From the NCBI RefSeq assembly GCF_011090385.1, contig NZ_SEWW01000001.1, forward strand, positions 434,001 to 498,000: 64,000 bases of DNA, written 5' to 3'. The notes under the pieces were generated by a model. It saw nothing but the letters and a program-made list of their open reading frames with translations. It searched no databases and was not told the DNA's origin. Shown one piece after another: positions 24,401 to 51,009 of the stretch; the stretch's first letter is position 1, and each line of letters starts with the position of its first letter. Origin of the DNA: Aquirufa beregesia (GTDB lineage: Bacteria > Bacteroidota > Bacteroidia > Cytophagales > Spirosomataceae). A program made the translations under genes and the position numbers.

Positions 24401-24554
24401 GGTTAATCCCAACGAAAGATTGGAACGTAGCTTGAGCGAAGCGGAAGGCGGATATTTGACCCTGCGCATAGGCCATGTGTGAAAGCGTCAAAGATTAAAG
24501 CCGTAAGCGGAGAGACAATCGGTTCTGCGGAGCAGAATTCGTCTTGGATTAACC
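24401..24554 (+). repeat. A-type structured interspersed element, copy 1
   Basis: 154 bases bounded by a perfect 9-base inverted repeat, GGTTAATCC (24401-24409) and GGATTAACC (24546-24554). The interior contains TTTGAC...GTCAAA arms and a TTCTGC/GCAGAA hairpin. Nearly the same sequence recurs in reverse at 50399-50553, with about 17 differences by eye, several of them compensatory. It shares recognisable blocks with the B-type elements (AGCGG, TTTGACC, GCATAGG, GTCAAA, GCGGAATTCG). Confidence 0.85.
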
Positions 24555-24574
24555 GTACTCCTGCTGTTTTTTTT

Positions 24575-24602
24575 GTTTCTTTTTTTATGAAAAAAAAGAA
24601 AC
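24575..24602. repeat. A/T-only hairpin beyond the 3' end of A copy 1
   Basis: GTTTC plus seven T, a 3-base loop, then eight A plus GAAAC. Equivalent hairpins lie beyond the 3' end of every A or B element in the window. It may act as a weak terminator or mark the element end. Confidence 0.6.
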
Positions 24603-24689
24603 ACCATGAAAAGTAGTATTCCAATAATGTTAATGATAAAAGGAAACAAAATAAGCCAAACCTTTATTGTTTCATCATTTCACTAGGAT

Positions 24690-24713
24690 TTTCTTTTTTT
24701 GAAAAAAAAGAAA
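24690..24713. repeat. A/T-only hairpin beyond the 3' end of B copy 1
   Basis: TTTC plus seven T, a G, then eight A plus GAAA. Because B copy 1 is reversed, this lies beyond its 3' end, facing the hairpin of A copy 1 across an 87-base A/T-rich spacer. Confidence 0.6.
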
Positions 24714-24731
24714 CAAAAAAACTTCTTTTTT

Positions 24732-24878
24732 GTCGTCCAGCCAAGGCGAATTCCGCTTTGCGGAACCGTGATTCTCTCCGCTATCGCCTATATTTTTGAC
24801 GCCGACGCGCATCACCTATGCTGAGGTCAAAACCTCGTCTACCGCTGCGTTCATCACATTTCGCTGGAGCTGGACGAC
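24732..24878 (-). repeat. B-type structured interspersed element, copy 1
   Basis: 147 bases bounded by a perfect 10-base inverted repeat, GTCGTCCAGC (24732-24741) and GCTGGACGAC (24869-24878). Read on the minus strand it has the same order of blocks as the A elements: a CGAAA start, AGCGGTAGACGAGG, TTTTGACC, GCATAGG, GTCAAAA, GCGGAG, the hairpin TTCCGC/GCGGAA, then TTCGCC. A second copy is at 50621-50767. Confidence 0.85.
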
Positions 24879-24920
24879 GGAACTCTCTTTCTTAAGAAAA
24901 TTCTACATTCTACATTTCTA

Positions 24921-25005
24921 GGTTAATCCCAACGAAAGGTTGAAACGGAGCTTGAGCGAAGCGAAAAGCGAATTCCGCTGAGCTGAACGACGTGATTCTC
25001 TTTCC
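24921..25005. repeat. Chimeric A/B remnant
   Basis: The first 40 or so bases match the 5' part of an A element (GGTTAATCCCAACGAAAGG, then GAGCTTGAGCGAAGCG). The sequence then switches to one resembling reversed B (GCGAATTCCGCTGAGC..., CGTGATTCTCTTTCC). The middle and the terminal partner are missing. It looks like a deletion or recombination product between an A and a B copy. Confidence 0.6.
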
Positions 25006-25012
25006 AAAAATC

Positions 25013-25042
25013 TAATTTCTAATTCTAAACGCTAATCACTAA
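25013..25042. repeat. Right arm of the 30-base inverted repeat bounding locus 1
   Basis: Complementary at 26 of 30 positions (by eye) to 24371-24400. It directly precedes the hppA terminator. Confidence 0.6.
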
Positions 25043-25072
25043 AAAAGGTCAACCCAACAGGATTGACCTTTT
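25043..25072 (-). terminator. Terminator after the pyrophosphatase gene
   Basis: Stem AAAAGGTCAA (25043-25052) with TTGACCTTTT (25063-25072), loop of 10 bases. In the minus direction it sits about 20 bases past the hppA stop and ends in a T run. Confidence 0.7.
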
Positions 25073-25092
25073 CACATAAAACCAAATTCAAA

Positions 25093-27261
25093 CTATTTCT
25101 TTGCCACAATCTTCATGACGATAGGAGCCTTCTCAACGTGAGAAACTTTGCCATCTGTTTTTGCTATATAAGGAGCAATAACTAACGAAACGATCGACAT
25201 TAATTTAATCAAAATATTCATAGATGGTCCTGAAGTATCTTTGAATGGATCACCTACAGTATCTCCCGTCACCGCTGCTTTGTGTGGCTCAGATCCTTTT
25301 TTATAAGTCACTCCATCAATTAAAACACCTTTTTCAAATGATTTTTTTGCATTGTCCCAAGCTCCACCTGCGTTAGATTGGAATATACCCATCAACACAC
25401 CTGAAACCGTAACACCCGCTAATAAACCACCCAAAACTTCTGGTCCCATGATAAAGCCAACAATAACTGGTACCGATAAAGCAATGGCTCCAGGTAACAT
25501 CATCTGACGAATCGAAGCTTCTGTTGAGATAGCTACACATTTTTCATATTCTGGCTTGGCTTTATATTCCATAATACCTGGAATTTCACGGAACTGACGA
25601 CGAACCTCATTCACCATTTCCATAGCTGCTTTTCCTACTGCTGAAATACATAATGCAGAGAAAATAAAGGGTATCATACCACCTACAAATAAACCAGCTA
25701 ATACATCCGCTTTATAGATGTCTATTTGTGTAATACCTGAAATACCTACAAATGCACCAAATAGAGCTAATGAAGTTAATGCCGCAGAAGCGATTGCAAA
25801 TCCTTTACCTGTGGCTGCTGTTGTATTACCAACCGCATCTAAATTATCTGTACGCTCACGAACTTCAGCTGGTAATTGAGCCATTTCTGCAATACCACCC
25901 GCATTATCAGCAATGGGTCCAAATGCATCAATAGCCAATTGCATAGCTGTTGTAGCCATCATACCTGCCGCAGCAATAGAAACTCCATAAATTCCAGCAA
26001 AGAAATAGGAGAAGTAAATACCAGCAGCTAAAACCAAAATAGGCAATACCGTTGACTCCATACCTACAGCTAAACCACCAATGATGTTTGTCGCATGTCC
26101 AGTACCTGATTTCTGTACGATTGAATCCACTGGACGTTTTCCCATAGCCGTGTAGTATTCCGTGATGATAGACATCAATGTACCTACAATAAGACCTACA
26201 ATAATGGAATAGAATACATCCATGGCAGTAAAACTAAATCCACGTAAAACCAAGGATTCTGGTAAAATATTCTTCACTAAAAAATAGGAAGTAATGAACG
26301 TGATTGCAATCGATAAGTAATTGCCTGTATTCAAGGCATTTTGAACCGAATCCGTTTCATTTTTAATACGAACAAAGAAAGTAGAAACCAATGAAGCTAA
26401 TAAGCCTACACCAGCAATCAACATCGGCAATAAAACAGGGGAGAAGCCTCCATAGTTATCACTAACTTCTATTTCCTGACCTAACACCATTGTTGCCAAG
26501 ATAGTGGCCACATAAGATCCGAACAAGTCAGCTCCCATACCAGCTACGTCACCCACATTGTCACCCACGTTATCAGCAATAGTGGCAGGATTACGCACAT
26601 CATCTTCAGGAATACCTGCTTCTACTTTTCCAACTAAATCAGCTCCTACATCGGCTGCTTTGGTGTAAATTCCACCACCCACACGAGCAAATAAAGCAAT
26701 TGATTCTGCACCTAAAGAAAAACCAGCTAATACCTCAATGGCTGTTTTCATCTCATTGGATGTTAAAGCTTGACCCTGAGCAAAAATCTGATAGAAGGTA
26801 ATGAATAAACCGCCTAATCCTAAGATAGCTAAACCAGCTACACCCATTCCCATCACCGAACCTCCAGTAAATGAAACAGATAATGCTTTAGCTAAGGAAG
26901 TTCTCGCAGCTTCCGCTGTACGAACATTGGCTTTGGTTGCTACGATCATACCAATATAACCTGCTGTAGCAGAAAATATGGCTCCAATCAAAAAGGCAAC
27001 CGCAATAAGTGGTGAAGAGTGAAATCCAGGTCCTTCCTGATTTCCTAACCATGCCAATAATATCGCAGTGGGGATTGCGAAATAGGCTAATATTTTCCAT
27101 TCTGCTTTCAAAAAGGCGATTGCACCATCTGCAATATAACCTGAAAGCTCTTTCATTGTGTCATTTCCAGCATCTTGCTTCGATACCCAGCTAAACTTCC
27201 AAGCCGTGTACAACAATCCTACTATTCCAAAAGCAGGAACTAAGTAAACAATTGAATCCAT
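25093..27261 (-). CDS. hppA: Membrane-bound pyrophosphatase, K+-dependent (Na+ and/or H+ pump)
   Basis: Inner-membrane pump of about 16 helices that uses pyrophosphate hydrolysis to export Na+ and/or H+. 722 residues. The substrate-binding and pump residues are in [60 protein letters not shown] and the C-terminal [20 protein letters not shown]. Around residues 478-487 it reads [10 protein letters not shown]: Ala and Gly at the two diagnostic positions indicate the K+-dependent class, most of whose members pump Na+. Flanked upstream by a strong promoter match and downstream by a terminator, so monocistronic. Confidence 0.95.
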
Positions 27262-27297
27262 AAAGTGTGTTTTAGATTATTCCAAAAAAATTTGTTA

Positions 27298-27327
27298 CAA
27301 AAATAAGAATTTTGGCGTATAAAACAA
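27298..27327 (-). promoter_or_regulatory. Bacteroidota-type promoter for the pyrophosphatase gene
   Basis: On the minus strand a TTG (complement of 27325-27327), exactly 19 bases, then TATTTTTG (complement of 27298-27305). This is a full match to the Bacteroidota housekeeping consensus TTG-N19-TAnnTTTG. The predicted start would leave a leader of about 30 nt before the ATG. The TTG lies immediately beyond the stop codon of the upstream DUF5686 gene. Confidence 0.65.
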
Positions 27328-29916
27328 CTAAAATGGAAATCTAAGCAATAGCTTGAAACGCTCAGGAACCCAATTACCCACGGGATAGGCTAGCTCTAAA
27401 CCCAGAAATTTACCAATGCCCGAAATACCATAAACGAACTCTTGATACGAACCTTGATTAACCCCTTGTAACATGTGAAGTCGGTTATAAACCACATATT
27501 CTCGGATACCGTATTGCGTCAATACATTCCATTGGCTCAACAACAATTTCCTTGGTTCCCACTTCGCATGCAGTTTAATATGATTATCTGTGGTACTAAA
27601 AGCATAATAGGGTAAAGCTCGAAACGATTGCTCATTGGCACTAATAAACATCGTTTGATTGCCATTAAAATGTGTATAATCTAGAAAATTAGTCGCCTTT
27701 TGTAAATAAGTAGTATAATTCAATTGAAGATTCAATGTACCTAAACGTGCCAAATTGATGAATTGGCTATAATCTAAATTCAAGCGCTGAAATTGATCAT
27801 CACCTGTTCCAAATGCATATATGAAATTAAAGGAAGGGCCTTCATTATTATTAATTCGCCGAACTCCATTAAATCGATTCCATGAGGCTTTGGGTTGCCA
27901 TCGAAAACCTATTGAACCCGCTACTTGATTTCCTCTATTCGGAATTTGATTGCCCCAAGCCTCATTTACTGGCATATTGGGTTCAAAAACCTTATCTTGA
28001 TTCAACCAGCCATGCTCAACCGAATTATTCAACATTTCTCTATTTCTAAATTCAATCAAAGATAAAAACCGAAGACTCGGAGTGAATTGGTATTGGTAAT
28101 TTAGATTTACATAATTTTTTTGAAATAGGTTGACATAATTTTCTGATAAAATTACAGCATACAGGGTATTCAAAAAGGGTGAAATCGGATTACTCCGATT
28201 TATTTGAAATACATTACTCCCTATCTCTGCTTTCAAATATTGGCGATTTTCATCAAAATTTCGCTCCAGATACACATCTCCATTCCAGGCATGACGAGCA
28301 ATAGCATACCGAACATTGGCACCCAAGGCCAAATAATTATTCCTTCCATAGCGATTCCTATACACTAAACTTCGGTCTACATAAAAGCCATCTACGGCAT
28401 TAAAACCTCCTCCAAATGAACTTAAATTCAGGCTTTTACCGATGGAGTTCTTTTCATAATTGTAATATTTTCCATAAATCAAATGCCCAAATTGGAATTT
28501 AGGCAATGCGTTGATAGAATCTTTTCTTCTCTTATCGGCACCAGCAATCCATAAACTATCCGCTTCTTTGTACCCGACCTTTTCCCCCTCCGTTAAAGGT
28601 ACCTGACGTTCTTCTTCCCAAAAACTTTCCGACTTATTTCTTGACATGGAATCCACTTCAAACGTATAATCAGAAGTCAAACCATCCATTTTAGCTAAAT
28701 TCTCCTTTTTCTCTAATTTGTCTACTTCCTTCAATACTTCTTTTAACTTCTTCCTGGTCAGCTCTTTACCCAAAGCCATTTTGGGATCTTTTACCTTTTC
28801 TCTATTTATTTCCTTAGCTAATTCCTTATTCAATCGCTCTTCAATGATGGCAGGTTTAACGACAAAGGCAGGATTTACTTTGATCTGATACTGCTTTATT
28901 TGTGTGATGTATCTAAAGTTGGCTTTAATCCCGAAGGCATCAAAATTGACTTGAGAATCATATTGAATGGGCATCCAAACACCTTGAAACAAAGCATTTT
29001 GTTGCGTAAACCCATAAGATCCATTGGGATCCTTAAATCTCAGCTGAAAAGAATATATACTCCAAGTATCTTCTACTACTTGTACCGTTCCTTCAAATAA
29101 GTCGTCATAACTAGCTCTAGGCTGAACCTGAATCTTACTGATGGTCATACCTTCTTGCGTAAAACTGCCCAAATAGGCAAATTTATATAGTTGAAATGCT
29201 TGGGGACCAAAGGGCGACCATAAGCTTACCCATACTTTAGGACGATAAAAGTTGGTTTGGGTCACTCGTAGATTCAACCCTTGATTTAAGGCAGGAGGCA
29301 AATTATTTCGGTTAGAAATGACTTTTTCTTGTAATCTATTCGGTTTCTGATAACTAACTTGGTTAATTCCCTCTAACACATATGTACTTCCCACTTTCAC
29401 CCCCATTTCTTTTTCTATCTTTTTCCCTCCCAACATTTTCACCAAAGAACTTACCTCTGTCACCTTGCCTGACCCCTTCACATAAGCCTTAGCTTCATAT
29501 GCATCTAATTCTTTTAAGTGAAATGGCGCCATAGCAATCATTCGACGCATAATACCTATGGCAGGATCCTCCTTTAAACCACTTACATTGACTTCAACTA
29601 AGGCCACAGCCTGCTCTTCCAAAACTACATCCAATAACTTATCTGAAGTTCCTGATTCCAATTCGATGGTAAATGTCTTGGGACTATGACCTAAAAAACG
29701 AAAGACCAGATTGTGTTTGCCTACTCCCGTTTTAATCGAATATTTTCCATCTTCATTGGCTGTGGTTCCCTTATTCTGATTAGATACCCAAACCGTAGCA
29801 AAAGGCATCACTTCTCCTTGTTTATTTCGGATAGTTCCATGAATTTGCTGTCCATGTAAAGAAGAAACAAAAATGAAAAATAGAGAAAGAGAGAAAAGTA
29901 GTTTTATAGAATTCAT
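27328..29916 (-). CDS. DUF5686 / carboxypeptidase-regulatory-like outer-membrane protein
   Basis: 862 residues with a signal peptide (LLFSLSLFFIFVSSLHGQ). Residues about 23-110 form a carboxypeptidase-D regulatory-like domain (IHGTIRNKQGEVMPFATVWVSNQNKGTTANEDGKYSI), followed by the DUF5686 region and a C-terminal beta-barrel ending in Phe (RFPF). A Lys/Glu-rich coiled segment (about 370-420) lies between plug and barrel. TonB-receptor-like layout, but no TonB box or plug motif recognised. Paralogous in layout to the shorter protein at 17916. A TATTTTTG box at 29933-29940 (minus) is a plausible -7 element. Confidence 0.82.
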   Translation of the reverse strand: MNSIKLLFSLSLFFIFVSSLHGQQIHGTIRNKQGEVMPFATVWVSNQNKGTTANEDGKYSIKTGVGKHNLVFRFLGHSPKTFTIELESGTSDKLLDVVLEEQAVALVEVNVSGLKEDPAIGIMRRMIAMAPFHLKELDAYEAKAYVKGSGKVTEVSSLVKMLGGKKIEKEMGVKVGSTYVLEGINQVSYQKPNRLQEKVISNRNNLPPALNQGLNLRVTQTNFYRPKVWVSLWSPFGPQAFQLYKFAYLGSFTQEGMTISKIQVQPRASYDDLFEGTVQVVEDTWSIYSFQLRFKDPNGSYGFTQQNALFQGVWMPIQYDSQVNFDAFGIKANFRYITQIKQYQIKVNPAFVVKPAIIEERLNKELAKEINREKVKDPKMALGKELTRKKLKEVLKEVDKLEKKENLAKMDGLTSDYTFEVDSMSRNKSESFWEEERQVPLTEGEKVGYKEADSLWIAGADKRRKDSINALPKFQFGHLIYGKYYNYEKNSIGKSLNLSSFGGGFNAVDGFYVDRSLVYRNRYGRNNYLALGANVRYAIARHAWNGDVYLERNFDENRQYLKAEIGSNVFQINRSNPISPFLNTLYAVILSENYVNLFQKNYVNLNYQYQFTPSLRFLSLIEFRNREMLNNSVEHGWLNQDKVFEPNMPVNEAWGNQIPNRGNQVAGSIGFRWQPKASWNRFNGVRRINNNEGPSFNFIYAFGTGDDQFQRLNLDYSQFINLARLGTLNLQLNYTTYLQKATNFLDYTHFNGNQTMFISANEQSFRALPYYAFSTTDNHIKLHAKWEPRKLLLSQWNVLTQYGIREYVVYNRLHMLQGVNQGSYQEFVYGISGIGKFLGLELAYPVGNWVPERFKLLLRFPF

Positions 29917-30048
29917 ATGAAGGGCTTTAATACAAAAATAGTTTGAGATTTTATATGTAAACTTTTTTTATGACAAAGGGTAAAATAAAGTAGTAAGTAG
30001 AATTACCAATCCTAACGTAAAGAAGATAAATTTGTTTTTCTTTTGATT

Positions 30049-31251
30049 ATGGCTATTACACATCGACAACTATTTCTTGATCATCTTGCTAAAACTTCTG
30101 ATGCACCTTTGGCTTTGGAAATTGAAAAAGCGGAACATATATATCTATATGATGATCAAGGTAAATCCTATATGGATTTAATCTCAGGTATAGCCGTTTC
30201 CAATGTGGGTCATCGACATCCTAAAGTTATTTCTGCCATTAAAAACCAATTAGATGCCTACATGCATTTAATGGTTTATGGGGAATACATCCAAAGTCCA
30301 CAGGTAAAACTAGCCGCTGCCCTAGTAAAATCAACCCAATCTTCCAGATTGAATCAAGTCTATTTTACTAATTCAGGAACAGAAGCCGTAGAAGGAGCCA
30401 TGAAACTGGCCAAAAGATACACGGGAAGAACTGAAATTATTTCCTGTTTTCAAGCCTATCACGGTGCTACACAAGGCGCCTTGTCTTTAGCTGGGGATGA
30501 AAATTTTAAGAACAGTTTTCGTCCCTTATTACCTGATATTCGCCATATTCGACATGGGAATGTAGTTGACTTAGCTCAAATCACGCATAAAACAGCGGCT
30601 ATTGTCATAGAAATAGTGGGTGGAGAGTCAGGAGTGAGGTTAGCTTCCAAATCCTATTTTCAAGCGCTAAAACAACGATGCCAAGAAACTGGATGTCTGT
30701 TAATCATAGATGAAATACAAACAGGCTTTGGAAGAACAGGTACATTTTGGGCATTTCAAGCCATGGACATAGAACCTGATATTTTACTTTCTGCCAAAGG
30801 AATGGGAGGGGGGATGCCCATTGGTGCTTTTATTGCACCAGAAGAAATCATGCAAAGCCTTACAGTAAGACCCGTTTTAGGTCATATTACCACTTTTGGG
30901 GGTCATCCTGTGTCATGCGCTGCCTCCTTGGCCACGCTAGAAACTATTTTTGAAGAACACTTATTGGATGATGTTGAAAAGAAAAGTCAACTTTTTAAAG
31001 ACCTTTTAATTCATCCAAGTATCAAAGAAGTACGGGGTATTGGTCTGATGTTGGCTGTTGAAATGGATTCTTTCCAAACAGTCAAAGCGGTTATTGACAC
31101 TTGTATTGAACAAGGATTAATCACCGATTGGTTTTTATTTTGCGATTATTCCATCCGCATTGCACCACCTTTGGTGATTACAGAAGACGAAATAAAAATA
31201 GCCTGTAACATCTTGCTACAGGCTATCCAATTAGTTACTACTAAAAATTAA
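30049..31251 (+). CDS. Class III PLP-dependent aminotransferase
   Basis: 400-residue aminotransferase of the acetylornithine/4-aminobutyrate group. Signatures: YMDLISGIAVSNVGHRHPKV, FTNSGTEAVEGAMKLAKRYTGR, CFQAYHGATQGALS, the cofactor Asp in LIIDEIQTGFGRTG, the PLP-binding Lys in LLSAKGMGGGMPIGAF, and TTFGGHPVSCAA. The donor and acceptor cannot be told from sequence. I use the ATG at 30049; a TTG six bases earlier is in frame. A TAAATTTG box (30027-30034) just upstream matches the -7 consensus. Its stop codon overlaps that of the convergent thioredoxin gene. Confidence 0.9.
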   Translation: MAITHRQLFLDHLAKTSDAPLALEIEKAEHIYLYDDQGKSYMDLISGIAVSNVGHRHPKVISAIKNQLDAYMHLMVYGEYIQSPQVKLAAALVKSTQSSRLNQVYFTNSGTEAVEGAMKLAKRYTGRTEIISCFQAYHGATQGALSLAGDENFKNSFRPLLPDIRHIRHGNVVDLAQITHKTAAIVIEIVGGESGVRLASKSYFQALKQRCQETGCLLIIDEIQTGFGRTGTFWAFQAMDIEPDILLSAKGMGGGMPIGAFIAPEEIMQSLTVRPVLGHITTFGGHPVSCAASLATLETIFEEHLLDDVEKKSQLFKDLLIHPSIKEVRGIGLMLAVEMDSFQTVKAVIDTCIEQGLITDWFLFCDYSIRIAPPLVITEDEIKIACNILLQAIQLVTTKN

Positions 31252-31571
31252 GCGTGCTTCAATAAAGCTTCAGCTAATACTGATTTTGGTAAGTTTCCAC
31301 CTACTAAACGCTCCTTCATTTCTCCATTTTTGAAAACCATCAATGTTGGAATAGAACGAATACCCAAAGAAGCAGGTACCGCTGAATTTAAATCCACATT
31401 CATTTTAGCTACAATCGCTTGACCTTCTACTTCACCTGCCAATTCTTCTACTACGGGTCCAATCATTTTACACGGACCGCACCATTCAGCCCAAAAATCC
31501 ACTAATACCGGAGTATCAGAACCTATTAACTCTTGAAAATTGGCATCAGTAGCCTCTACGTATTTTCCCAT
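31248..31571 (-). CDS. trxA: Thioredoxin
   Basis: Cytoplasmic dithiol reductant, 107 residues, the canonical size. Active site WAEWCGPCKMIGPVVEEL and the cis-Pro segment GIRSIPTLMVFKNGE are intact, with no signal peptide. Its 3' end overlaps the convergent aminotransferase by four bases. It lies 65 bases downstream of dnaE on the other side without a clear terminator. Confidence 0.97.
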   Translation of the reverse strand: MGKYVEATDANFQELIGSDTPVLVDFWAEWCGPCKMIGPVVEELAGEVEGQAIVAKMNVDLNSAVPASLGIRSIPTLMVFKNGEMKERLVGGNLPKSVLAEALLKHA

Positions 31572-31636
31572 GATTTATTTTTTATTAAAATTCAAAATTA
31601 AACATTTTTATTATTTCTATTGGATAAACAAGCTAA

Positions 31637-35200: not shown

Positions 35201-35203
35201 ATA

Positions 35204-35887: not shown

Positions 35888-36003
35888 AGGCCTTGGAATC
35901 AAAAAATATAAACGAATTTAAATAAATAAGTCAATACTTGCCCGCAAATTTTGGGAGTTTCGCGCTATTTTCTTGATTTTTGTAAAACATTAAATTTTTA
36001 AGC

Positions 36004-37482: not shown

Positions 37483-37484
37483 TC

Positions 37485-41022: not shown

Positions 41023-41042
41023 TTTAACCTAAATTTACGGAC

Positions 41043-42386: not shown

Positions 42387-42399
42387 TCTAACAATAGGC

Positions 42400-42475
42400 A
42401 AAGCCGCAAGTAATGGTTCTTGTGGTTTTGTTTCAATCAAAAAGTCGGAAGCTTCTAGTTTCCGGCTTTTTTGTT
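42400..42475 (+). terminator. Two successive hairpins after amtB
   Basis: First: AAAGCCGCAAG (42400-42410) with CTTGTGGTTTT (42419-42429), including two G-U pairs. Second: AAGTCGGAA...TTTCCGGCTT between 42442 and 42468, ending in a T run. The second is the better terminator. Confidence 0.65.
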
Positions 42476-42484
42476 TGTAAATCA

Positions 42485-43810
42485 TTACACGAATTGTTCT
42501 AGTAAAATATCGGCCCGCATCAATCCTTCTTCGTCCATGGAATTATAACGAACAGGCTGTACGGTATTGATCAGAAGGGGATCATAGGGAACGCGAACGC
42601 GAACATAGTTCTCAGAAAATCCTTCCATAAAACCATTAGAAGAAGCTTCTTCAAAAAGCACTTTACCTTTTCGACCCAATTGGGTCTCATAAAATGCCCG
42701 ACGTTTTTTATCAGAAAGGATATGTAACATCTTAGAACGTTCTGCTTTTACCTTTGCATCTATTTTCGGCTGAATATCAACCGCATAAGTATTGGCACGT
42801 TCTGAATAAGTAAATACATGCAAATAAGAGATATCTAAGTCATTCAAAAAATGATAGGTATCTAAAAACATCTCCTCGCTTTCGCCAGGATGACCTACAA
42901 TCACGTCAACTCCAATGCAAGCATGTGGCATCAGTGATTTAATTTCTCGAACTCGGTCAGCATACAATTCCCTTTGGTACCTACGTTTCATTAAACGCAA
43001 AACCGCATTAGATCCAGATTGCAAGGGAACATGAAAATGAGGAACAAAATACTGGGAATCAGCCAAGTATTGTAATAATTCGCTATGCAATAAATTAGGT
43101 TCAATGGATGAAATCCGAAAGCGATTTAAATAACTTTGCGCATCAAGCGCTTGTATCAAAGCAAAAAAGGATTCCACTCGTTTACCTTGTTGAATGCCAA
43201 AATCACCAATATTTACGCCTGTTAATACCACTTCTTTCACTCCTTTTTCCGCAATTTCCTTCACTAAACCCAGCACATGCTCAATGCTACTCGACCTACT
43301 TTGTCCACGTGCTAAAGGGATGGTACAGTAGGAGCAAGGGTAATCACAACCATCTTGAACTTTTAAGAAAGTCCGTGTTCGGTCATTGACAGAATAGGAG
43401 GCATGGTAATCCAAATCATAACGAATTTCAGAGGCTATGACTTTAGGTAGGGTATTTTTCTTATCGGAAACAAAATAAGGTGAAATAATATCAGCTAATT
43501 GAAATTTCTCATTGGCTCCTAAAACCAAATCAACTCCAGGAATTTGAACAATTTCATCGGGTTTCAATTGGGCATAGCAGCCCAAAATGACAACCACTGA
43601 TTCGGGATTGATTTTTTTAGCTTCTTTAACAACTTTTTTACACTTTTTGTCTGCTTGATCTGTTACGCTACAGGTATTAATAACAAAAAGATCTGGAGAT
43701 TGCTGGAACTCCACCCGCTCAAAACCCATAGGTTCTAAGGAACGAGCAATGGTGCTAGACTCGGCAAAATTCAACTTGCAACCTAACGTATAAAAAGCTA
43801 ATTTCTTCAT
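42485..43810 (-). CDS. mtaB: tRNA (ms2t6A37) methylthiotransferase
   Basis: Radical-SAM enzyme adding a methylthio group to t6A37 of tRNA. 441 residues. N-terminal UPF0004 domain with FYTLGCKLNFAESS, VINTCSVTDQADKKCKK and GCYAQLKPDEI supplying three cluster Cys; radical-SAM motif DGCDYPCSYCTIPLARGQSRS; VLTGVNIGDFG; a C-terminal TRAM-like domain. The VNIGDFG and TCSVT patterns fit MtaB rather than MiaB or RimO. It interrupts the nitrogen-assimilation cluster on the opposite strand. Confidence 0.9.
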   Translation of the reverse strand: MKKLAFYTLGCKLNFAESSTIARSLEPMGFERVEFQQSPDLFVINTCSVTDQADKKCKKVVKEAKKINPESVVVILGCYAQLKPDEIVQIPGVDLVLGANEKFQLADIISPYFVSDKKNTLPKVIASEIRYDLDYHASYSVNDRTRTFLKVQDGCDYPCSYCTIPLARGQSRSSSIEHVLGLVKEIAEKGVKEVVLTGVNIGDFGIQQGKRVESFFALIQALDAQSYLNRFRISSIEPNLLHSELLQYLADSQYFVPHFHVPLQSGSNAVLRLMKRRYQRELYADRVREIKSLMPHACIGVDVIVGHPGESEEMFLDTYHFLNDLDISYLHVFTYSERANTYAVDIQPKIDAKVKAERSKMLHILSDKKRRAFYETQLGRKGKVLFEEASSNGFMEGFSENYVRVRVPYDPLLINTVQPVRYNSMDEEGLMRADILLEQFV

Positions 43811-43837
43811 GGGGCATACTAAGCTGCAAATTTAAAA

Positions 43838-43867
43838 CAAAAATGGCGGATAAATCCGCCATTTTTA
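43838..43867 (-). terminator. Terminator after the GSII gene
   Basis: AAAAATGGCGGA, a 3-4 base loop and TCCGCCATTTTT form a strong palindrome between the GSII stop and mtaB. The A and T runs on both sides make it usable in either direction. Confidence 0.85.
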
Positions 43868-43898
43868 ACCATTTATGATTTAATCGTTCCCCCCAATA

Positions 43899-44912
43899 TT
43901 AATATTTGGCTGTTTTTACCGTTTTAATAATTCTAGATGCCACTTTATATGGATCTGCAGCCGAATTAGGACGACGATCTTCTAACCAACCTTTCCATCC
44001 TTTTTCTACCGTTGCGATAGGGATACGAATAGAAGCTCCACGGTCAGAAACTCCATAAGAGAACTGGTGAATGGACTGCGTTTCGTGTTTACCTGTCAAA
44101 CGTAAGTGGTTATCAGCACCATACACTTCGATGTGCTCTTTCACTAGTGGAGCAAATGCCGAACAGATTGCATCATAAGTACCTTTTTCTCCACAAGTAC
44201 GTAAAGCTGTATTAGAGAAGTTGGCATGCATACCTGAACCATTCCAATCTAATTCACCTAGAGGCTTACAGTGCCAGTTGATGGCTACACCATATTTCTC
44301 ACCTAATCTTTCTAATAAATAACGAGCTACCCAAATTTGATCACCCGCTTCTTTAGCACCTTTCGCAAAAATTTGGAATTCCCACTGACCAGCAGCTACT
44401 TCGGCATTGATACCTTCTACATTTAAACCTGCTTCTAAACAAATGTCTAAATGTTCCTCAACGATATCTCTTCCAAATGCATTACTTGCACCTACAGAAC
44501 AATAGTATGGTCCTTGTGGCGCTGGATAACCGTTAGATGGGAAACCTAAAGGCTTGTTGGTTTCTGTATCCCACAAGAAATATTCTTGTTCGAAACCAAA
44601 CCAAAAATCGTTATCATCATCTTCAATGGTAGCACGACCATTGCTTTCATGTGCTGATCCATCTGAATTCAACACTTCGCACATCACTAAATAGGCACTT
44701 TTTCTAGCAGGATCTGGGCAAATGAACACAGGTTTCAAAAGACAGTCAGAAGAACCACCTGGAGCCTGCTCAGTAGATGAGCCATCAAAGCACCACATAT
44801 CACAATCTTCTAGTCGACCACTGAAGTTATTTTCAATCTTTGTTTTAGAACGTAAACTCTGAGTAGGTTTGTAACCGTCAAGCCAAATGTATTCAAGTTT
44901 AGATTTTGCCAT
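43899..44912 (-). CDS. glnA: Glutamine synthetase, type II (eukaryote-like)
   Basis: Makes glutamine from glutamate, ammonia and ATP. 337 residues, matching the short GSII class rather than GSI (about 470). Motifs: EYIWLDGYKPTQSLRSKT, DGSSTEQAPGGSSDCLLKP, FWFGFEQEYFLWD (metal ligands), NGSGMHANFSN, the GKHETQSIHQFSYGVSDRGASIRIP stretch and YLEDRRPNSAADPY-like WLEDRRPNSAADPY. It has no Tyr adenylylation loop of GSI. It is divergent from a GSIII gene across a 244-base gap that must hold promoters for both. Confidence 0.96.
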   Translation of the reverse strand: MAKSKLEYIWLDGYKPTQSLRSKTKIENNFSGRLEDCDMWCFDGSSTEQAPGGSSDCLLKPVFICPDPARKSAYLVMCEVLNSDGSAHESNGRATIEDDDNDFWFGFEQEYFLWDTETNKPLGFPSNGYPAPQGPYYCSVGASNAFGRDIVEEHLDICLEAGLNVEGINAEVAAGQWEFQIFAKGAKEAGDQIWVARYLLERLGEKYGVAINWHCKPLGELDWNGSGMHANFSNTALRTCGEKGTYDAICSAFAPLVKEHIEVYGADNHLRLTGKHETQSIHQFSYGVSDRGASIRIPIATVEKGWKGWLEDRRPNSAADPYKVASRIIKTVKTAKY

Positions 44913-45156
44913 GATTTTAAACGTGTTTTTATTAAAAATTCATTTTTTGTAACAAATGCAATGCAAAAATAAACCTGTTTTTAAGAAAAACAATTTTTTG
45001 AAATAAAAAATATACAATTTCATCACAAACAAACTTGAAAATAAAAAACATGACATTTATTTGATATAACAAGATATACGGGAAAAAGAGATTAAATTTG
45101 TTTCAAGTAACAAGCAAAAATCCTATTTTTACGTTCTTGATAACCAAATTCCAACC

Positions 45157-47364
45157 ATGGCAATAACTAGATTCAAAGCTCTTGAATTAGCTCAAAGTAG
45201 AGCTACTGCCGTTGTGAAAATCCCTACTGAAAAAGTAAGTGATTATTACGGCAATATGACATTTAATGATGAGGTAATGCGCTCATTATTATCTCCTGAA
45301 GCGTACCTTAAGATTACAACAGCGATTAATACTGGTTCTAAAATTGACCGCGATGCGGCTGATGAAGTAGCAGCAGCGATGAAATCTTGGGCTATTTCTA
45401 AGGGAGCAACTCACTATACGCACTGGTTTCAACCTTTAACAGGAACTACGGCAGAGAAACATGACTCGTTTTTTGACATTGATTTAAGCACAGGTAAGGC
45501 GGTAGAAAAATTCAAAGGATCTGCTTTGGTTCAACAAGAGCCAGATGCATCCTCTTTTCCTAATGGAGGAATTCGTTCCACATTTGAAGCACGTGGTTAT
45601 ACAGGTTGGGATCCTTCTTCGCCTGCATTTATCATGGAAAATGCGGCTGGAACTGCTACTTTATGTATTCCTTCTGTATTTGTTTCCTATACAGGAGAGG
45701 CTTTAGACTATAAAACACCTTTATTAAAGTCCATTGAATTAATTGACAAAGCAGCTACAGCTGTGGTGAAAGAATATTTCAATCGTGATGTGACTAAAGT
45801 AGTTCCTACTGTGGGTATCGAGCAAGAATACTTTTTAATAGATGAAGCTCTTTACAATGCTCGTCCAGATTTAATGATGGCGGGAAGAACAGTATTTGGA
45901 CATGCACCAGCCAAAGGTCAACAATTAGAGGATCACTATTTTGGATCGATTCCAACTCGTGTGAATGCCTTCATGGTTGATTTTGAAATTGAAGCTTTAA
46001 AATTAGGTATGCCGGTTCGCACACGTCATAATGAAGTGGCTCCAGCGCAATTTGAGGTAGCTCCGACTTTTGAAGAAGCTAACTTAGCTTGTGATCACAA
46101 TGCACTTTTGATGGACTTAATGTCGAAAGTAGCTGTAAAACATAAATTAAAAGTATTGTTCCATGAGAAACCATTTGCGGGTATCAATGGATCAGGTAAA
46201 CATAATAACTGGGCTTTAGGTACTGATACGGGTGTCAATTTATTGGGACCATCATCTAAACCTAAAGAAAACCTTCGTTTCTTGACTTTCTTTGTTAACG
46301 TAGTAAAAGCGGTACATGATAATGCCGATTTATTGCGTGCTTCTATTGCTTCTTCAGGAAATGAGCACCGTTTGGGAGCCAATGAAGCGCCACCAGCGAT
46401 TGTTTCTGTTTTCTTAGGATCTACCATGAACAATGTGTTGGACGACCTAGAGAACATGAAGGACATCGAAGAATTCCAATTAGAAAAAGGAGATAATGTA
46501 TACTTAAAATTAGGTATCAATAAAATCCCTTCCTTGATTTTGGATAATACCGACCGTAACAGAACGTCGCCATTTGCTTTCACAGGAAATAAATTTGAAT
46601 TCCGTGCCGTAGGTTCATCTGCTAATTCAGCTGCCCCTATGACAATTTTGAATACGATTGTTGCCAATCAATTGATTCTATTCCGTAAGGAGGTTGATAG
46701 CATCTTAGAAAAAGGAGTGAAGAAAGAATTGGCTATTATGGATGTATTGAAGCGCTATGCCAAAGAATCTAAGAAAATCCGTTTTGAAGGAAATGGATAT
46801 TCTGATGAATGGGTAGAAGAAGCAGCCAAGAGAGGTTTGTCCAACATGAAGACTACTCCAGAGGCACTATTAGTATACACTCGTCCTGAATCCATTGAAT
46901 TATTCACGAAATACGGCATTTATTCCAAAGAAGAAATGCATGCCCGTTACGAGATTGAATTGGAAAACTACATTAAGAAAATCCAAATTGAATCGCGTGT
47001 TGTAGGTGATATGGCCATTAACCACATTGTTTCTACCTCGTTGAAATACCAAACTCAATTGGTAGAAAATGTTAAAGGACAGAAAGAAATTGGTATTGAT
47101 CCTCAGTATTATGCACCTACGGTTGAAATGATTAAAAAAATCTCTGAATACACTTCTAAGGTTGTTTTATTGCAAAACGACATGACTGAAGCAAGGAAAG
47201 AGGCTAATAATGTGGAAAATATCGAAGAAAGAGCGTTCTTGTATGGCTCAAAGGTCAAAGGCTTTTTCGAAGAAATCCGTTATGCAGTGGATAAATTGGA
47301 ATTAATCATTGATGACGATGAGTGGCCACTACCGAAGTACAGAGAATTATTAATGATTAAATAG
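45157..47364 (+). CDS. glnN: Glutamine synthetase, type III
   Basis: Large glutamine synthetase characteristic of Bacteroidota and cyanobacteria, 735 residues. Class III signatures: FQPLTGTTAEKHDSFFD, FPNGGIRSTFEARGYTGWDPSSPAF, GIEQEYFLID, RHNEVAPAQFEVAPTFEEANLACDHN, HEKPFAGINGSGKHNNWAL and NRTSPFAFTGNKFEFRAVGSSAN. Complete. Upstream, TTTG (45097-45100) and TATTTTTA (45122-45129), 21 bases apart, loosely resemble the Bacteroidota promoter. The next gene begins 11 bases after the stop codon. Confidence 0.97.
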   Translation: MAITRFKALELAQSRATAVVKIPTEKVSDYYGNMTFNDEVMRSLLSPEAYLKITTAINTGSKIDRDAADEVAAAMKSWAISKGATHYTHWFQPLTGTTAEKHDSFFDIDLSTGKAVEKFKGSALVQQEPDASSFPNGGIRSTFEARGYTGWDPSSPAFIMENAAGTATLCIPSVFVSYTGEALDYKTPLLKSIELIDKAATAVVKEYFNRDVTKVVPTVGIEQEYFLIDEALYNARPDLMMAGRTVFGHAPAKGQQLEDHYFGSIPTRVNAFMVDFEIEALKLGMPVRTRHNEVAPAQFEVAPTFEEANLACDHNALLMDLMSKVAVKHKLKVLFHEKPFAGINGSGKHNNWALGTDTGVNLLGPSSKPKENLRFLTFFVNVVKAVHDNADLLRASIASSGNEHRLGANEAPPAIVSVFLGSTMNNVLDDLENMKDIEEFQLEKGDNVYLKLGINKIPSLILDNTDRNRTSPFAFTGNKFEFRAVGSSANSAAPMTILNTIVANQLILFRKEVDSILEKGVKKELAIMDVLKRYAKESKKIRFEGNGYSDEWVEEAAKRGLSNMKTTPEALLVYTRPESIELFTKYGIYSKEEMHARYEIELENYIKKIQIESRVVGDMAINHIVSTSLKYQTQLVENVKGQKEIGIDPQYYAPTVEMIKKISEYTSKVVLLQNDMTEARKEANNVENIEERAFLYGSKVKGFFEEIRYAVDKLELIIDDDEWPLPKYRELLMIK

Positions 47365-47375
47365 TCTGTCACCTT

Positions 47376-47933
47376 ATGACACAAATAAGCAATCCCGGAT
47401 TTTCTCCCGAGGAAATCAAACGTTTGAAGGAGCTTTGCGCAACTGAACAACGTACCTTTATTTTGATCGAAGACGAAGATCTTCCGGTAAGCAATGATAG
47501 AGAAATGGTCCACATACAGTTTGTGGGCCATTTTGAGCAAAAGGAGGTTGTCTATGACGCTATCCTTTGCACGCTTCAGTTACATTATTCTAGCTTATTA
47601 TATGAAGCAGCAGAGAGAGAAGCTATCCAACATTTCCCGCTGTATGTTCCCATAGAAAACCGGGATGAAACCTATCAAGCGAATGATTCATTAGATGAAG
47701 AAGTGGAAATGATGGTTTTAGAAATCATCGAAGAAATGGAAGAAAACGATGAAATCAAAGTAAGTGAATATGTAGAAGTGGATAAAGACTTTGATTTTGG
47801 TATCGGTTTGGAGGCTGCTTTATATGTTCCTGCGCTGACAGATGAGGTGATTGAGCAATTCATCCACGACTTCAATGCGGATGCTATACAATTAGATACT
47901 TCCTTATATTCGTTTAAATCTGAAGAAGAGTAA
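47376..47933 (+). CDS. Acidic hypothetical protein between glnN and rsmE
   Basis: 185 residues, strongly acidic (DSLDEEVEMMVLEIIEEMEENDEIKVSEYVEVDKDFDFG), soluble, no signal peptide, no recognised motif. Starts FSPEEIKRLKELCATEQRTFILIEDEDLP. It is tightly spaced with both neighbours (11 bases from glnN, two from rsmE), so it is very probably translated as part of one operon. Function not recognised. Confidence 0.75.
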   Translation: MTQISNPGFSPEEIKRLKELCATEQRTFILIEDEDLPVSNDREMVHIQFVGHFEQKEVVYDAILCTLQLHYSSLLYEAAEREAIQHFPLYVPIENRDETYQANDSLDEEVEMMVLEIIEEMEENDEIKVSEYVEVDKDFDFGIGLEAALYVPALTDEVIEQFIHDFNADAIQLDTSLYSFKSEEE

Positions 47934-47935
47934 GC

Positions 47936-48652
47936 ATGAGTATTCCGGTTTTTTATGAGCCAAATCCAATTGCTAGCCCATTTTTAAGCGAAGAAGAGTC
48001 CATTCATGCCCATCGGGTCCTCCGTTTAAAATCGGGAGACCCGATTTTTATTTTAAATGGAATTGGTCAAAAGTTTGAAGCCAAAATTGACCAATCCACC
48101 AGTAAAAAGACGACATTCCACCTGCTAAAAGAAATAGAAAATTCGGCCTTGCCAGCCTATTCTATTCATCTATGGATAGCCCCCACCAAACAAATGGAGC
48201 GCATGGAATGGATGGTCGAGAAATGTGCGGAATTTGGAATTCAATCCATTGGGTTTTTCCATTCTCGGTATTCAGAAAGAAAAGAGATCAAAACACATCG
48301 TTTAGAAAAAATTGTCGTTTCGGCTTTGAAACAGTCTAAAAACCTGTTTTTGCCGAATATTTACCCAATCATTTCCTTCAAAGAGCTTGTCAAACAACTA
48401 AGTAACAAGGAACATGAGCAAAAACTATTTGCTTATATATCGAATCCTCCAAGTCCAAGTTTAAGTAAAAGTATACAACAAAACCAAGCTTATCATATTT
48501 TGATTGGCCCAGAAGGAGATTTTTCAACCGAGGAAAGTGCTGCTTTATTAGCGAGTGATTGGACTCCTTTTAGCTTGGGAAAAGCTATTTTAAGAACTGA
48601 AACAGCTGGATTAGCTGCCACCCATGCCATTCATCTATTACATGAAAATTAA
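47936..48652 (+). CDS. rsmE: 16S rRNA (uracil-1498-N3)-methyltransferase
   Basis: SPOUT-class RNA methyltransferase, 238 residues. An N-terminal PUA-like domain (HAHRVLRLKSGDPIFILNGIGQKFEAKI) is followed by the knotted SAM-binding domain with MERMEWMVEKCAEFGIQSIGFFHSRYSERK, HILIGPEGDFSTEE and SLGKAILRTETAGLAATHAI, all diagnostic of RsmE. Its 3' end overlaps the DUF4159 gene by 11 bases. Confidence 0.95.
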   Translation: MSIPVFYEPNPIASPFLSEEESIHAHRVLRLKSGDPIFILNGIGQKFEAKIDQSTSKKTTFHLLKEIENSALPAYSIHLWIAPTKQMERMEWMVEKCAEFGIQSIGFFHSRYSERKEIKTHRLEKIVVSALKQSKNLFLPNIYPIISFKELVKQLSNKEHEQKLFAYISNPPSPSLSKSIQQNQAYHILIGPEGDFSTEESAALLASDWTPFSLGKAILRTETAGLAATHAIHLLHEN

Positions 48653-49301
48653 GGCATTTCTTTTCTTATTTTTAGGTCTAAGTCAAGCTATTTTGGCACA
48701 AAATCCCCTGTTTAAAATTGCCAAAGTAAAATACAAAGGGGGAGGAGATTGGTATGCCAATAAGACTTCATTGCCTAATCTCATTCAATTTGCTAACCAG
48801 CAAAAGAAAATGGGCATCGATCCTAGTCCTGAGACCGTGGAATTAGCCAGTCCCATGCTTTGGAATTATCCCTTCATACATTTGACAGGGCATGGTAATG
48901 TGCTTTTCGACAAAGAGGAACAAAGAAACTTACGACAATATTTATTGGGTGGAGGTTTTCTGCACATTGATGATAACTATGGTTTAGATAAATCCATTCG
49001 TAGAGAAATGGCGAAGGTCTTTCCTGAATTAAGTTTTGTGGAATTACCATTCAGTCATCCCATTTATTCACAAGCATATTCCTTTCCCAAAGGTTTACCC
49101 AAAGTACATGAGCACGACGGCAAGGCTCCCCAAGGATTTGGATTGATTTATCAAGGTCGACTTATCTGTTTTTATTCCTATGAATGCGATTTGGGAAATG
49201 GATGGGAAGACGAAAGCATTTACCATGATCCGGTTGAAAAAAGAGAGGCTGCACTTAAAATGGGAGTCAATCTCCTTCAATTCGCTTTCCTACACCCATA
49301 A
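48642..49301 (+). CDS. DUF4159-family secreted protein
   Basis: 219 residues from the ATG at 48642, which gives a good signal peptide (MKIKAFLFLFLGLSQAILAQ); the upstream in-frame ATG at 48624 would add six residues and weaken it. The body (VKYKGGGDWYANKTSLPNLIQFANQQ, ASPMLWNYPFIHLTGHGNVLFD, LRQYLLGGGFLHIDDNYG) resembles DUF4159, a glutamine-amidotransferase-like fold of unknown role. Overlaps rsmE by 11 bases, implying coupled translation. Confidence 0.85.
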   Translation: MKIKAFLFLFLGLSQAILAQNPLFKIAKVKYKGGGDWYANKTSLPNLIQFANQQKKMGIDPSPETVELASPMLWNYPFIHLTGHGNVLFDKEEQRNLRQYLLGGGFLHIDDNYGLDKSIRREMAKVFPELSFVELPFSHPIYSQAYSFPKGLPKVHEHDGKAPQGFGLIYQGRLICFYSYECDLGNGWEDESIYHDPVEKREAALKMGVNLLQFAFLHP

Positions 49302-49390
49302 CTGATAAAAATCATAAAAGTATATTGGAATACTAGAGATTCTTAAACTTTTCATGGCTAAATTTGTAGCCATATCTTATTATTACTTTT
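49302..49390 (+). promoter_or_regulatory. Possible promoter with overlapping hairpin upstream of the desaturase
   Basis: TAAATTTG at 49359-49366 matches the -7 consensus and is embedded in a small perfect palindrome GGCTA-aatttg-TAGCC (49356-49371). No TTG at the ideal distance. The palindrome could be an operator overlapping the promoter; weak evidence. Confidence 0.3.
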
Positions 49391-50152
49391 ATGCAATTAG
49401 TACTTCCTGCTTTTATTATTCATTGGTACGTATCTCTATTTAGTCAAACTTTCTTCCTACACCGTTATTCAGCACATAAAATGTTCTTAATGAACAAATT
49501 CTGGGAGAAATTTTTCTATTTTCTTACTTATTTATCCCAAGGATCTTCCTTTTTAAGTCCAAGAGCTTACGCCATTCTACATAGAATGCACCATGCATTT
49601 TCGGATACTCCTAAAGATCCACATTCACCGATGTTCTCCAGCAACGTCTTTACGATGATGTGGAAAACAAAGAACATTTATAATGCGGTTTTGAACCGTT
49701 CTCAAAAAGTAGAAGAGCGTTTTGAGCATGATTATCCCGTTTCTAAAACCATCGAAAAAATTGGTGATTCTTGGGTTTCAAGAGTCGGCTGGGGAGTGGC
49801 CTATTCTTCTTTCTACATTGTTGCCTACAAATATTTTGATATGCACTGGGCATTCTTCTTTTTGTTACCTGTACATTTTTTGATGGGGCCTGTACATGGC
49901 GCTATTGTTAATTGGTCTGGTCACAAATATGGCTATCAAAATTATGACAATCATGATCATTCGAAGAACTCTTTGGTAGTAGATGTTTTGATGATGGGAG
50001 AACTGTTTCAAAACAATCACCATAAATTACCGAATCGTGTCAATTTTGCTACCAAATGGTTTGAGATTGACCCAACTTATCCTATGGTAAAATTATTGAC
50101 TTGGTTACGTATTATTCGTCCCAATGTAAAAGATCCTAATTCCAAGTTTTAA
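49391..50152 (+). CDS. Acyl-lipid/acyl-CoA desaturase (membrane di-iron)
   Basis: 253-residue integral membrane protein introducing a double bond in fatty acyl chains. The three histidine boxes are present: HRYSAH (with FFLHRYSAHKMF), HRMHHAFSD, and NNHHKLPN near the C-terminus, ligating the di-iron centre, separated by hydrophobic helices. DesC/delta-9 type is likely from the box spacing and short length. Monocistronic: a possible promoter precedes it and a strong terminator follows. Confidence 0.92.
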   Translation: MQLVLPAFIIHWYVSLFSQTFFLHRYSAHKMFLMNKFWEKFFYFLTYLSQGSSFLSPRAYAILHRMHHAFSDTPKDPHSPMFSSNVFTMMWKTKNIYNAVLNRSQKVEERFEHDYPVSKTIEKIGDSWVSRVGWGVAYSSFYIVAYKYFDMHWAFFFLLPVHFLMGPVHGAIVNWSGHKYGYQNYDNHDHSKNSLVVDVLMMGELFQNNHHKLPNRVNFATKWFEIDPTYPMVKLLTWLRIIRPNVKDPNSKF

Positions 50153-50171
50153 TTATATAAATTGATGTTAG

Positions 50172-50203
50172 AAAGCCCTGAATTTATTCAGGGCTTTTTT
50201 TTA
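50172..50203 (+). terminator. Terminator after the desaturase
   Basis: AAAGCCCTGAAT pairs with ATTCAGGGCTTT around a minimal loop, followed by a run of T. Confidence 0.88.
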
Positions 50204-50216
50204 TCAACTGTCCCGC

Positions 50217-50232
50217 CCTGAAATAAGTTGAC
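50217..50232. repeat. Left arm of a 16-base inverted repeat (IS-end-like)
   Basis: CCTGAAATAAGTTGAC, complementary to GTCAACCTATTTCAGG at 50972-50987 in 15 of 16 positions. The two arms enclose the A and B elements of locus 2. Sequence of this kind resembles insertion-sequence termini in Bacteroidota, but no transposase remains between them. Confidence 0.5.
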
Positions 50233-50355
50233 AGTTTTTAGGACGACTCAGCTGGTAGTTATCGAACATTAATATTTGGGATTTTCCGATATGTATTTAT
50301 TGAAGCAATACATGTTATTTTATATCGCACTCTACTTTAATGCGATTACTTAGGT

Positions 50356-50381
50356 ATTTCTTTTTTTTTAAAAAAAGAAAT
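50356..50381. repeat. A/T-only hairpin beyond the 3' end of A copy 2
   Basis: ATTTC plus nine T, then seven A plus GAAAT. Because A copy 2 is reversed, this is on its 3' side, as for the other copies. Confidence 0.6.
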
Positions 50382-50398
50382 AAAAAAAAATGAAGTAC

Positions 50399-50553
50399 GG
50401 TTAATCCTAAGACGAATTCCGCTACGCGGAACCGATGTTCACTCCGCATACGGCTTTAATCTTTGACTCTAACGCACATGGCCTATGCGCCGGGTCAAAT
50501 ATCCGCCTACCGCTTCGCTCATGCTACGTTCCCATCTTTCGTTGGGATTAACC
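50399..50553 (-). repeat. A-type structured interspersed element, copy 2
   Basis: 155 bases bounded by GGTTAATCC and GGATTAACC (50399-50407 and 50545-50553). On the minus strand it aligns end to end with the copy at 24401-24554. The internal hairpin is TTCCGC/GCGGAA instead of TTCTGC/GCAGAA, so both arms changed together. Confidence 0.85.
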
Positions 50554-50620
50554 TCATCAGTTGTCTTTATTAGAGTTTAGTTTTTAGAATGAATTTTGAG
50601 ATTTTTTGATAGAAAATACC

Positions 50621-50767
50621 GTCGGTCAGTACGAGCGAAAGATGATGAACTCAGCGGTAGACGAGGTTTTGACCTTAGCAAAGGCGATGCGTGTCGGCGT
50701 CAAAAATATAGGCGATAGCGGAGTGAATCACGGTTTCGCGAAGCGAAATTCGCCTTTGATGACCAAC
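50621..50767 (+). repeat. B-type structured interspersed element, copy 2
   Basis: 147 bases, same length and block order as the copy at 24732-24878. The ends are GTCGGTCA and TGACCAAC, complementary except for one position, although they differ from the ends of copy 1. The internal hairpin is TTTCGC/GCGAAA instead of TTCCGC/GCGGAA, again changed on both arms. Confidence 0.85.
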
Positions 50768-50785
50768 AAGAAAAGAAGTTTTTTC

Positions 50786-50987: not shown

Positions 50988-51009
50988 ACAAGGCAACACT
51001 TTGAATATT

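What the first reader, a model, noticed from the sequence alone, without database searches (positions are those of the whole stretch)
24401..50767. A two-subfamily, ~150-bp interspersed element whose terminal inverted repeats differ but stay self-complementary
Four near full-length copies (24401-24554, 24732-24878, 50399-50553, 50621-50767) share block order and length. A copies end in GGTTAATCC/GGATTAACC, B copy 1 in GTCGTCCAGC/GCTGGACGAC, and B copy 2 in GTCGGTCA/TGACCAAC. The interiors are homologous, yet the ends differ in sequence while keeping complementarity. That is hard to explain by drift and suggests selection on a fold (RNA, or a single-stranded DNA hairpin used for movement). I do not know a described family with this design.
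Basis: seen in the sequence. Interest (0 to 1): 0.85.

Follow-up and report, generated by a model that had tools for sequence, protein, structure and literature searches.

The report
Paired folding repeats in Aquirufa genomes
A freshwater bacterium and some of its relatives carry dozens of copies of two related 150-letter DNA repeats that fold back on themselves and largely keep that fold as their sequences change, a new family most like the small paired hairpin repeats already known as passive mobile DNA in bacteria.

Summary
The four copies lie at the stated coordinates, A and B are homologous (106 of 142 aligned consensus positions), and their terminal stems differ while staying largely paired. 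The host genome has 43 A and 22 B matches. The repeat occurs in 6 of 38 genomes of the genus (Aquirufa, by contig match) and as one divergent copy in another genus. Covariation supports one fold: a long arm plus a side hairpin. The strand running into the T-tract folds better in 75 of 83 A and 61 of 61 B copies. Hairpins belong to a module: 140 of 147 full-length copies are followed by a palindrome (PAL), and 72 of 72 neighbouring A/B pairs are inverted. Three comparisons show an A-B pair precisely present or absent at one PAL. No Rfam match at gathering threshold, no enzyme partner found, target duplication unresolved. Best reading: a new REPIN/BIME-like family of non-autonomous hairpin repeats, propagated and lost as DNA, the fold being recognised. 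The enzyme is unknown; an RNA role and palindrome-templated mutation are not excluded.

The parts
24401..24554 (+). A copy (hairpin repeat, ends GGTTAATCC/GGATTAACC)
24576..24601 (.). PAL palindrome, A side
24602..24689 (.). variable linker between the two PALs
24690..24713 (.). PAL palindrome, B side
24732..24878 (-). B copy (ends GTCGTCCAGC/GCTGGACGAC), tail-to-tail partner of the A copy at 24401
24921..24973 (+). truncated A copy (A positions 1-53)
50209..50995 (.). IS3-like MITE (TIR about TGTCTTGTCCTGAAATAGGTTGAC) that carries the PAL-A-B-PAL cassette; the orthologous site in G016 has no insertion. Limits read by eye from the TIR motif
50357..50380 (.). PAL palindrome, A side
50399..50553 (-). 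A copy, head-to-head partner of the B copy at 50621
50621..50767 (+). B copy (ends GTCGGTCAGT/GATGACCAAC)
50787..50811 (.). PAL palindrome, B side

Best explanation
A and B are two diverged versions of one ~150-nt hairpin repeat that works as a non-autonomous mobile DNA element, like the paired REP hairpins of REPINs/BIMEs but about four times longer. Each hairpin has an outer stem, a side hairpin and a long irregular arm, and is usually followed by a T-tract and the PAL palindrome. A and B always stand as inverted neighbours, tail-to-tail (A>-PAL-linker-PAL-<B) or head-to-head, singly or in alternating arrays. The fold of one strand is probably what is recognised while the DNA is single-stranded, by an unidentified enzyme acting in trans; that would let stem sequences drift if pairing is largely kept. 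Arrays grow and shrink by recombination, and an A-B pair can be lost precisely between its two PALs. Shown: homology, covariation, strand bias, module layout, inverted neighbours, between-species turnover, presence/absence at PAL. Inferred: recognition as ssDNA, the enzyme, and loss rather than gain at PAL. My odds: a non-autonomous mobile or amplifying repeat 0.75; fold recognised as ssDNA 0.45.
For: Copy number and spread. Fold; examples are A columns 32/106 (AT 52, TA 30, AA 1 of 83; E=0.02), B 116/126 (CG 38, TA 22, CT 1 of 61; E=0.02) and, weaker, A 126/134 (CG 56, TA 22, TG 5; E=0.43). Position 6 of the B end occurs as G, A, T and C, each with its complement in at least one copy. Strand bias. 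Homologue in another genus with a third end sequence (CATTTAATC/GATTAAATG), a similar branched fold (z -4.92) and a PAL-like palindrome. Of 147 full-length copies at the 74 sites fetched from four genomes, 140 have a PAL within 70 bp 3' (A 81 of 86, B 59 of 61); of 72 neighbouring A/B pairs 35 are tail-to-tail, 37 head-to-head and 0 same-way. Exact PAL pattern in 6 of 6 carrier and 0 of 10 non-carrier genomes of the genus that were searched. Orthologous sites without A/B. Filled/empty PAL pairs whose flank matches overlap by 24-26 bp. Convergent ORFs at 15 of 24 non-edge clusters against 9 of 49 neighbouring ORF pairs in the window, p=0.0004.
Against: No transposase is tied to A/B. Y1 transposase genes occur in 5 of 6 carriers but also in 3 of 10 non-carriers, and not in the carrier G005; in 10 of the 12 Y1 loci examined no A/B match was better than E=0.64, and other hairpin repeats were seen by eye beside several of them. 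No target duplication could be read. Six site groups are occupied in all four species compared, so copies are old or the gaps are hot spots. Fold energy of the window B copy is unremarkable (z -0.29), of window A modest (z -2.04). Two A covariation measures do not exceed shuffles (pairs with changes on both sides 5 against 5.4; further pair types 20 against 21.4). One strong B signal (columns 5/13) is not a base pair. G.U excess over A.C is not significant by pairs (A 14 against 5, p=0.06; B 9 against 3, p=0.15), and for B pairs predicted on the other strand it is reversed (G.T 11, A.C 22 cells). A strand spanning one B-A pair would pair B with A (-162.0 kcal/mol) rather than fold each alone (-53.8 and -44.1).
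Confidence: 0.5

Rival explanations
1. RNA element: A and B act in transcripts that read through from convergent genes, as terminators, 3'-end stabilisers or RNase III sites, and selection keeps the RNA fold.
For: Strand bias; T-tract after the hairpins; convergent intergenic position; six site groups occupied in four species.
Against: The simple scan calls no terminator at the full A or B copies of the window and finds promoter-like sites at about shuffled frequency (not built for Bacteroidota promoters). No Rfam family at gathering score. Locus 1 of the window has A/B in the host only, among five genomes readable there. In a transcript spanning the pair, B would pair with A.
Confidence: 0.25
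2. No selection: the repeats are dead palindromes; quasi-palindrome template switching and gene conversion between copies restore complementarity and spread variants.
For: Many copies, arrays and partial copies allow conversion; the linked non-structural block in B (columns 5/13) looks like shared haplotypes; most B ends keep one or more mismatches.
Against: Internal loops and a branched fold are kept rather than turned into a perfect palindrome. A similar fold persists in another genus, 109 of 141 aligned positions identical to the A copy at 50399 and 117 of 140 to a short A copy in L070.
Confidence: 0.15
3. Ordinary MITE of an IS3-family element: A/B are cargo of, or derived from, IS3-like elements.
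For: The 50-kb pair and two copies in L069 are bounded on both sides by IS3-like TIRs; 9 more of 27 host clusters have one inward TIR within 350 bp, and 22 of the 23 TIR motifs found in the host loci lie near a cluster (loci are centred on clusters). IS3 genes (HTH_Tnp_1, rve) lie in one array.
Against: 15 of 27 host clusters have no inward TIR within 350 bp and only 3 have both. A/B ends do not resemble the TIR (by eye). No TIR motif was found around the other-genus copy.
Confidence: 0.1

Closest known systems
REPIN / BIME (REP hairpin pairs, RAYT-associated)
   Same: Inverted pairs of hairpins, arrays in alternating orientation, intergenic, many copies (definitions from abstracts: PMC3116915 in its outline, PMC2817692 in the search listing).
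   Different: Hairpins ~150 nt with a branched fold instead of 20-40 bp; extra PAL and linker; no RAYT tied to them.
Rickettsia palindromic elements (RPE), ERIC, RUP
   Same: 100-200-bp repeats whose transcripts form long stem loops, with terminal inverted repeats (table and passages of PMC2229807).
   Different: No conserved TA termini seen and no target duplication read; two subfamilies with different ends; module structure. No direct sequence comparison with those families was made.
CIR repeats of Caulobacter/Brucella
   Same: Two arms joined by a linker (passage of PMC2229807).
   Different: Each arm here is a branched hairpin; the GANTC motif was not tested.
Integron attC sites
   Same: Sequence varies while a single-strand fold is kept (recalled).
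   Different: No cassette ORFs seen between the repeats; ends do not show the recalled GTTRRRY/RYYYAAC cores; no integrase searched.

Membership tests
REPIN/BIME | Hairpin repeats paired in inverted or alternating orientation, extragenic, many copies | tested here: met
   72 of 72 neighbouring A/B pairs inverted; 43 A and 22 B matches; in 25 of 27 host clusters no ORF of 90 aa or more overlaps the cluster, 2 have a small one.
REPIN/BIME | Short (20-40 bp) palindrome with unpaired GTAG or CGTC tag (abstract of PMC3733652) | tested here: not met
   A is 154 bp, B 147 bp in the window. Tags were not tested; B commonly starts CCGTCG, A shows no such tag by eye.
REPIN/BIME | Linked RAYT (Y1) transposase | tested here: not met
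   Y1 hits in 5 of 6 carriers and 3 of 10 non-carriers; no A/B match better than E=0.64 in 10 of the 12 Y1 loci.
MITE of a DDE transposon | Identical TIRs matching an autonomous element | tested here: inconclusive
   A and B ends differ from each other; 20 flanking proteins scanned include one IS3 pair. Genomes were not searched for an autonomous copy.
MITE of a DDE transposon | Target-site duplication | tested here: inconclusive
   Empty sites at locus 1 are too diverged to read; linear copies show only heptad-type direct repeats, seen by eye.
Any Rfam family | Score over gathering threshold | tested here: not met
   0 matches in the window. At relaxed thresholds 25 and 8 matches, all below gathering; the best (Phe_leader, E=0.0048) covers the L25 gene's own terminator.
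Integron attC | Integrase and cassette ORFs | not tested
   No integrase search was made.
Functional RNA | Discrete transcript | not testable with these tools
   No RNA-seq available.

The most novel reading that the evidence does not exclude
PAL is a recombination site and the A-B hairpin pair a cassette that is excised from and inserted into PAL as folded single-stranded DNA: an integron-like, gene-free cassette system in which the hairpins are the recognised ends. The tail-to-tail (A>-PAL-linker-PAL-<B) and head-to-head (PAL-<A-B>-PAL) forms would be two openings of one circle.
Probability: 0.1. Interest if true: 0.85.

Novelty: new variant of a known kind. Interest (0 to 1): 0.5.

Why it matters
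It extends paired-hairpin repeats to long branched folds in a Bacteroidota genus, with two subfamilies and a relative in another genus that let one ask whether the fold or the sequence is recognised. Orthologous filled, empty and solo-PAL sites in sequenced species make gain and loss directly testable.

Tried and rejected
RAYT/IS200 link: Y1 genes found, but without A/B beside the 10 of 12 loci examined. Phage origin: the A pattern has 0 exact matches in viral contigs. Known RNA. A gene partner: 20 proteins beside array sites and 6 in the window are mostly ordinary genes or of no family. A PAL-free form of the MITE, which would have shown insertion of the whole PAL cassette: none among the places listed, a capped list. 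L072, where two A copies flank a gene: the gene is RmuC-like. My first reading, that the head-to-head pair is the basic unit, and my second, that the tail-to-tail unit is, both fell: the two junction types are about equal, 37 and 35.

Papers: 'Aquirufa' with 'repeat' gave 7 papers, judged from the listing only, none about genome repeats; 'Aquirufa' with 'genome' and 'transposase' gave none; other searches. Seen: outline with abstract of PMC3733652 and PMC3116915; passages of PMC2229807; PMC2817692 in the search listing only.

Rows dropped: hits covering under 80% of a query and copies with N before the 92 A and 62 B distinct sequences; then 9 of 92 A and 1 of 62 B for length. From 83 A and 61 B I took 32 and 15 representatives and left out one of the 15 B, a truncated copy, so 14 B were aligned. 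One B row with a mis-set 3' end stayed in the end table.
Full report
Observation. A and B consensus sequences share 106 of 142 aligned positions; the printed alignment is more similar inside than at the ends. In the 3,231,072-base genome A has 43 and B 22 matches at E<=0.001, partial copies included. A truncated fifth copy lies at 24921-24973.

Where it occurs. With DNA of A, 6 of 99 genomes searched match, all of one genus. With a covariance model of A (R1) 6 of 38 genomes of the genus match, with 59, 58, 35, 18, 14 and 6 places, B copies among them, and 7 of 222 of the family; the seventh is one copy in another genus (G215, 96.4 bits, stricter filters). A pattern for A in 84,980 species genomes gave 46 stretches, in four named Aquirufa species and one MAG labelled Cytophagaceae; the host's own records may be left out there. 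No hit in viral contigs.

Fold. Both subfamilies fold as an outer stem, a CGAA/TTCG stem, a side hairpin and a long arm; the structures counted were set by hand from the folds. On 32 A representatives of 83 kept copies, 96.5% of cells pair; 46 cells have changes on both sides against 19.9 (sd 3.5) shuffled and 1-8 for slid versions. On 14 B: 95.5%, 17 against 6.0 (sd 1.9), slid 0-7. Two other A measures are not above shuffles: pairs with changes on both sides, 5 against 5.4, and further pair types, 20 against 21.4. B ends of the same copy pair better than shuffled ends, although only 6 of 61 copies are fully Watson-Crick over ten positions. A ends are nearly invariant, 69 of 83 exact, so there sequence as well as pairing seems constrained.

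Strand. RNA energy is lower on the strand that runs into the T-tract in 75 of 83 A and 61 of 61 B (DNA parameters 76 of 83 and 61 of 61). Against shuffles, z is -2.04 for window A, -0.29 for window B, -4.92 for the other-genus copy and -3.25 for its other strand. G.U cells exceed A.C cells on the chosen pairs (25 to 6 and 16 to 6), not significantly by pairs (p 0.06 and 0.15), and the sign reverses for B pairs predicted on the other strand.

Module. Over 74 sites in four genomes, 140 of 147 full-length copies have a PAL within 70 bp 3'. Neighbouring A/B pairs are tail-to-tail (35, gaps 144-315 bp) or head-to-head (37, gaps 34-315 bp), never same-way. Linkers between tail-to-tail PALs are of several kinds that I could not relate by eye (cut output). 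The exact PAL pattern occurs in 6 of 6 carriers (54 in the host) and 0 of 10 non-carriers searched. The copy in G215 has the hairpin, a T-tract and one PAL-like palindrome.

IS3-like elements. Of 27 host clusters, 3 have IS3-like TIRs facing inward on both sides within 350 bp, 9 on one side, 15 none. IS3 elements thus often sit beside these repeats and carry some, but do not bound most of them.

Turnover. Among 74 sites (27, 23, 14 and 10 from G000, G033, G021 and G018), flanks give 33 site groups. Seven include all four species; one of these is a lump of 14 sites joined through flank matches that look IS-derived, leaving six, four of them matched on both flanks in every pair. Nineteen groups are seen in one species only; sites that I did not fetch would lower that number. 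At shared sites the content and orientation often differ, so sharing may be old copies, repeated insertion, or both. Window locus 1 (L25 and H-PPase genes) has no A/B in G005, G016, G021 or G033; in G018 the flanks end at contig ends in IS-like sequence, so it is open. Locus 2 is occupied in G000, G033 and G021, reduced to one PAL in G018, and without insertion in G016 and G005. In the host genome one IS context exists three times filled and once empty (L269), another once filled (L060) and once empty (L268). With the G018/G033 pair, all flank matches overlap by 24-26 bp, the PAL itself. At locus 2 loss is the simpler history, since three species are filled; replication slippage between the PALs would explain it.

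Position. 15 of 24 non-edge clusters lie between convergent ORFs of 90 aa or more, against 9 of 49 neighbouring ORF pairs in the window, two of which hold the repeats (p=0.0004); intergenic length was not controlled for.

Interpretation. Inverted pairing of two homologous hairpins, alternating arrays, convergent intergenic placement and a strand-biased fold match what REPINs and BIMEs look like. Membership fails on length and on the RAYT link, so I call it REPIN-like, not a REPIN. The enzyme is unknown. RNA function and non-selective restoration of pairing remain possible.

Noticed in passing
L069 (G000:C10:37000-56000), units at about 2659-3553 and 14983-15877: A 12-kb stretch of genes is flanked by two inverted copies (99.3% over 895 bases) of the MITE carrying A-B; it could invert or move as a composite.
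   Followed up: partly
L242, L243, L244: A 178-aa RAYT-like Y1 transposase gene has other hairpin repeats beside it (TTCGACATG..CATGTCGAA type, by eye), unlike A/B.
   Followed up: partly
L234, L235, L236, L238: IS200-like Y1 genes lie near repeats with CCATGGATTTAAATCCATGG or close variants, in tandem in L235 (by eye).
   Followed up: no
window 24368-24394, 24897-24920, 25005-25040; locus 1 in G016 and G033 (L178, L175): Intergenic heptad-type repeats (TTAGNNN and CATTCTA units, by eye) lie around the repeats and at the orthologous sites.
   Followed up: no
L067 4407-4457, L059 3694-3744, L066 3709-3754, window 24921-24973: Four of five 5' A fragments in the host loci break between A positions 47 and 53 (the fifth, in L059, at 33), suggesting a recurrent derived form.
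   Followed up: no
L057 2746-2820: tRNA-His gene close to an A/B array, about 90 bases before its first repeat.
   Followed up: no
L265 1501-1700: The single other-genus copy lies just upstream of a small gene that looks like an XRE-type antitoxin (by eye, no domain search), with no toxin-sized gene between it and the copy.
   Followed up: no
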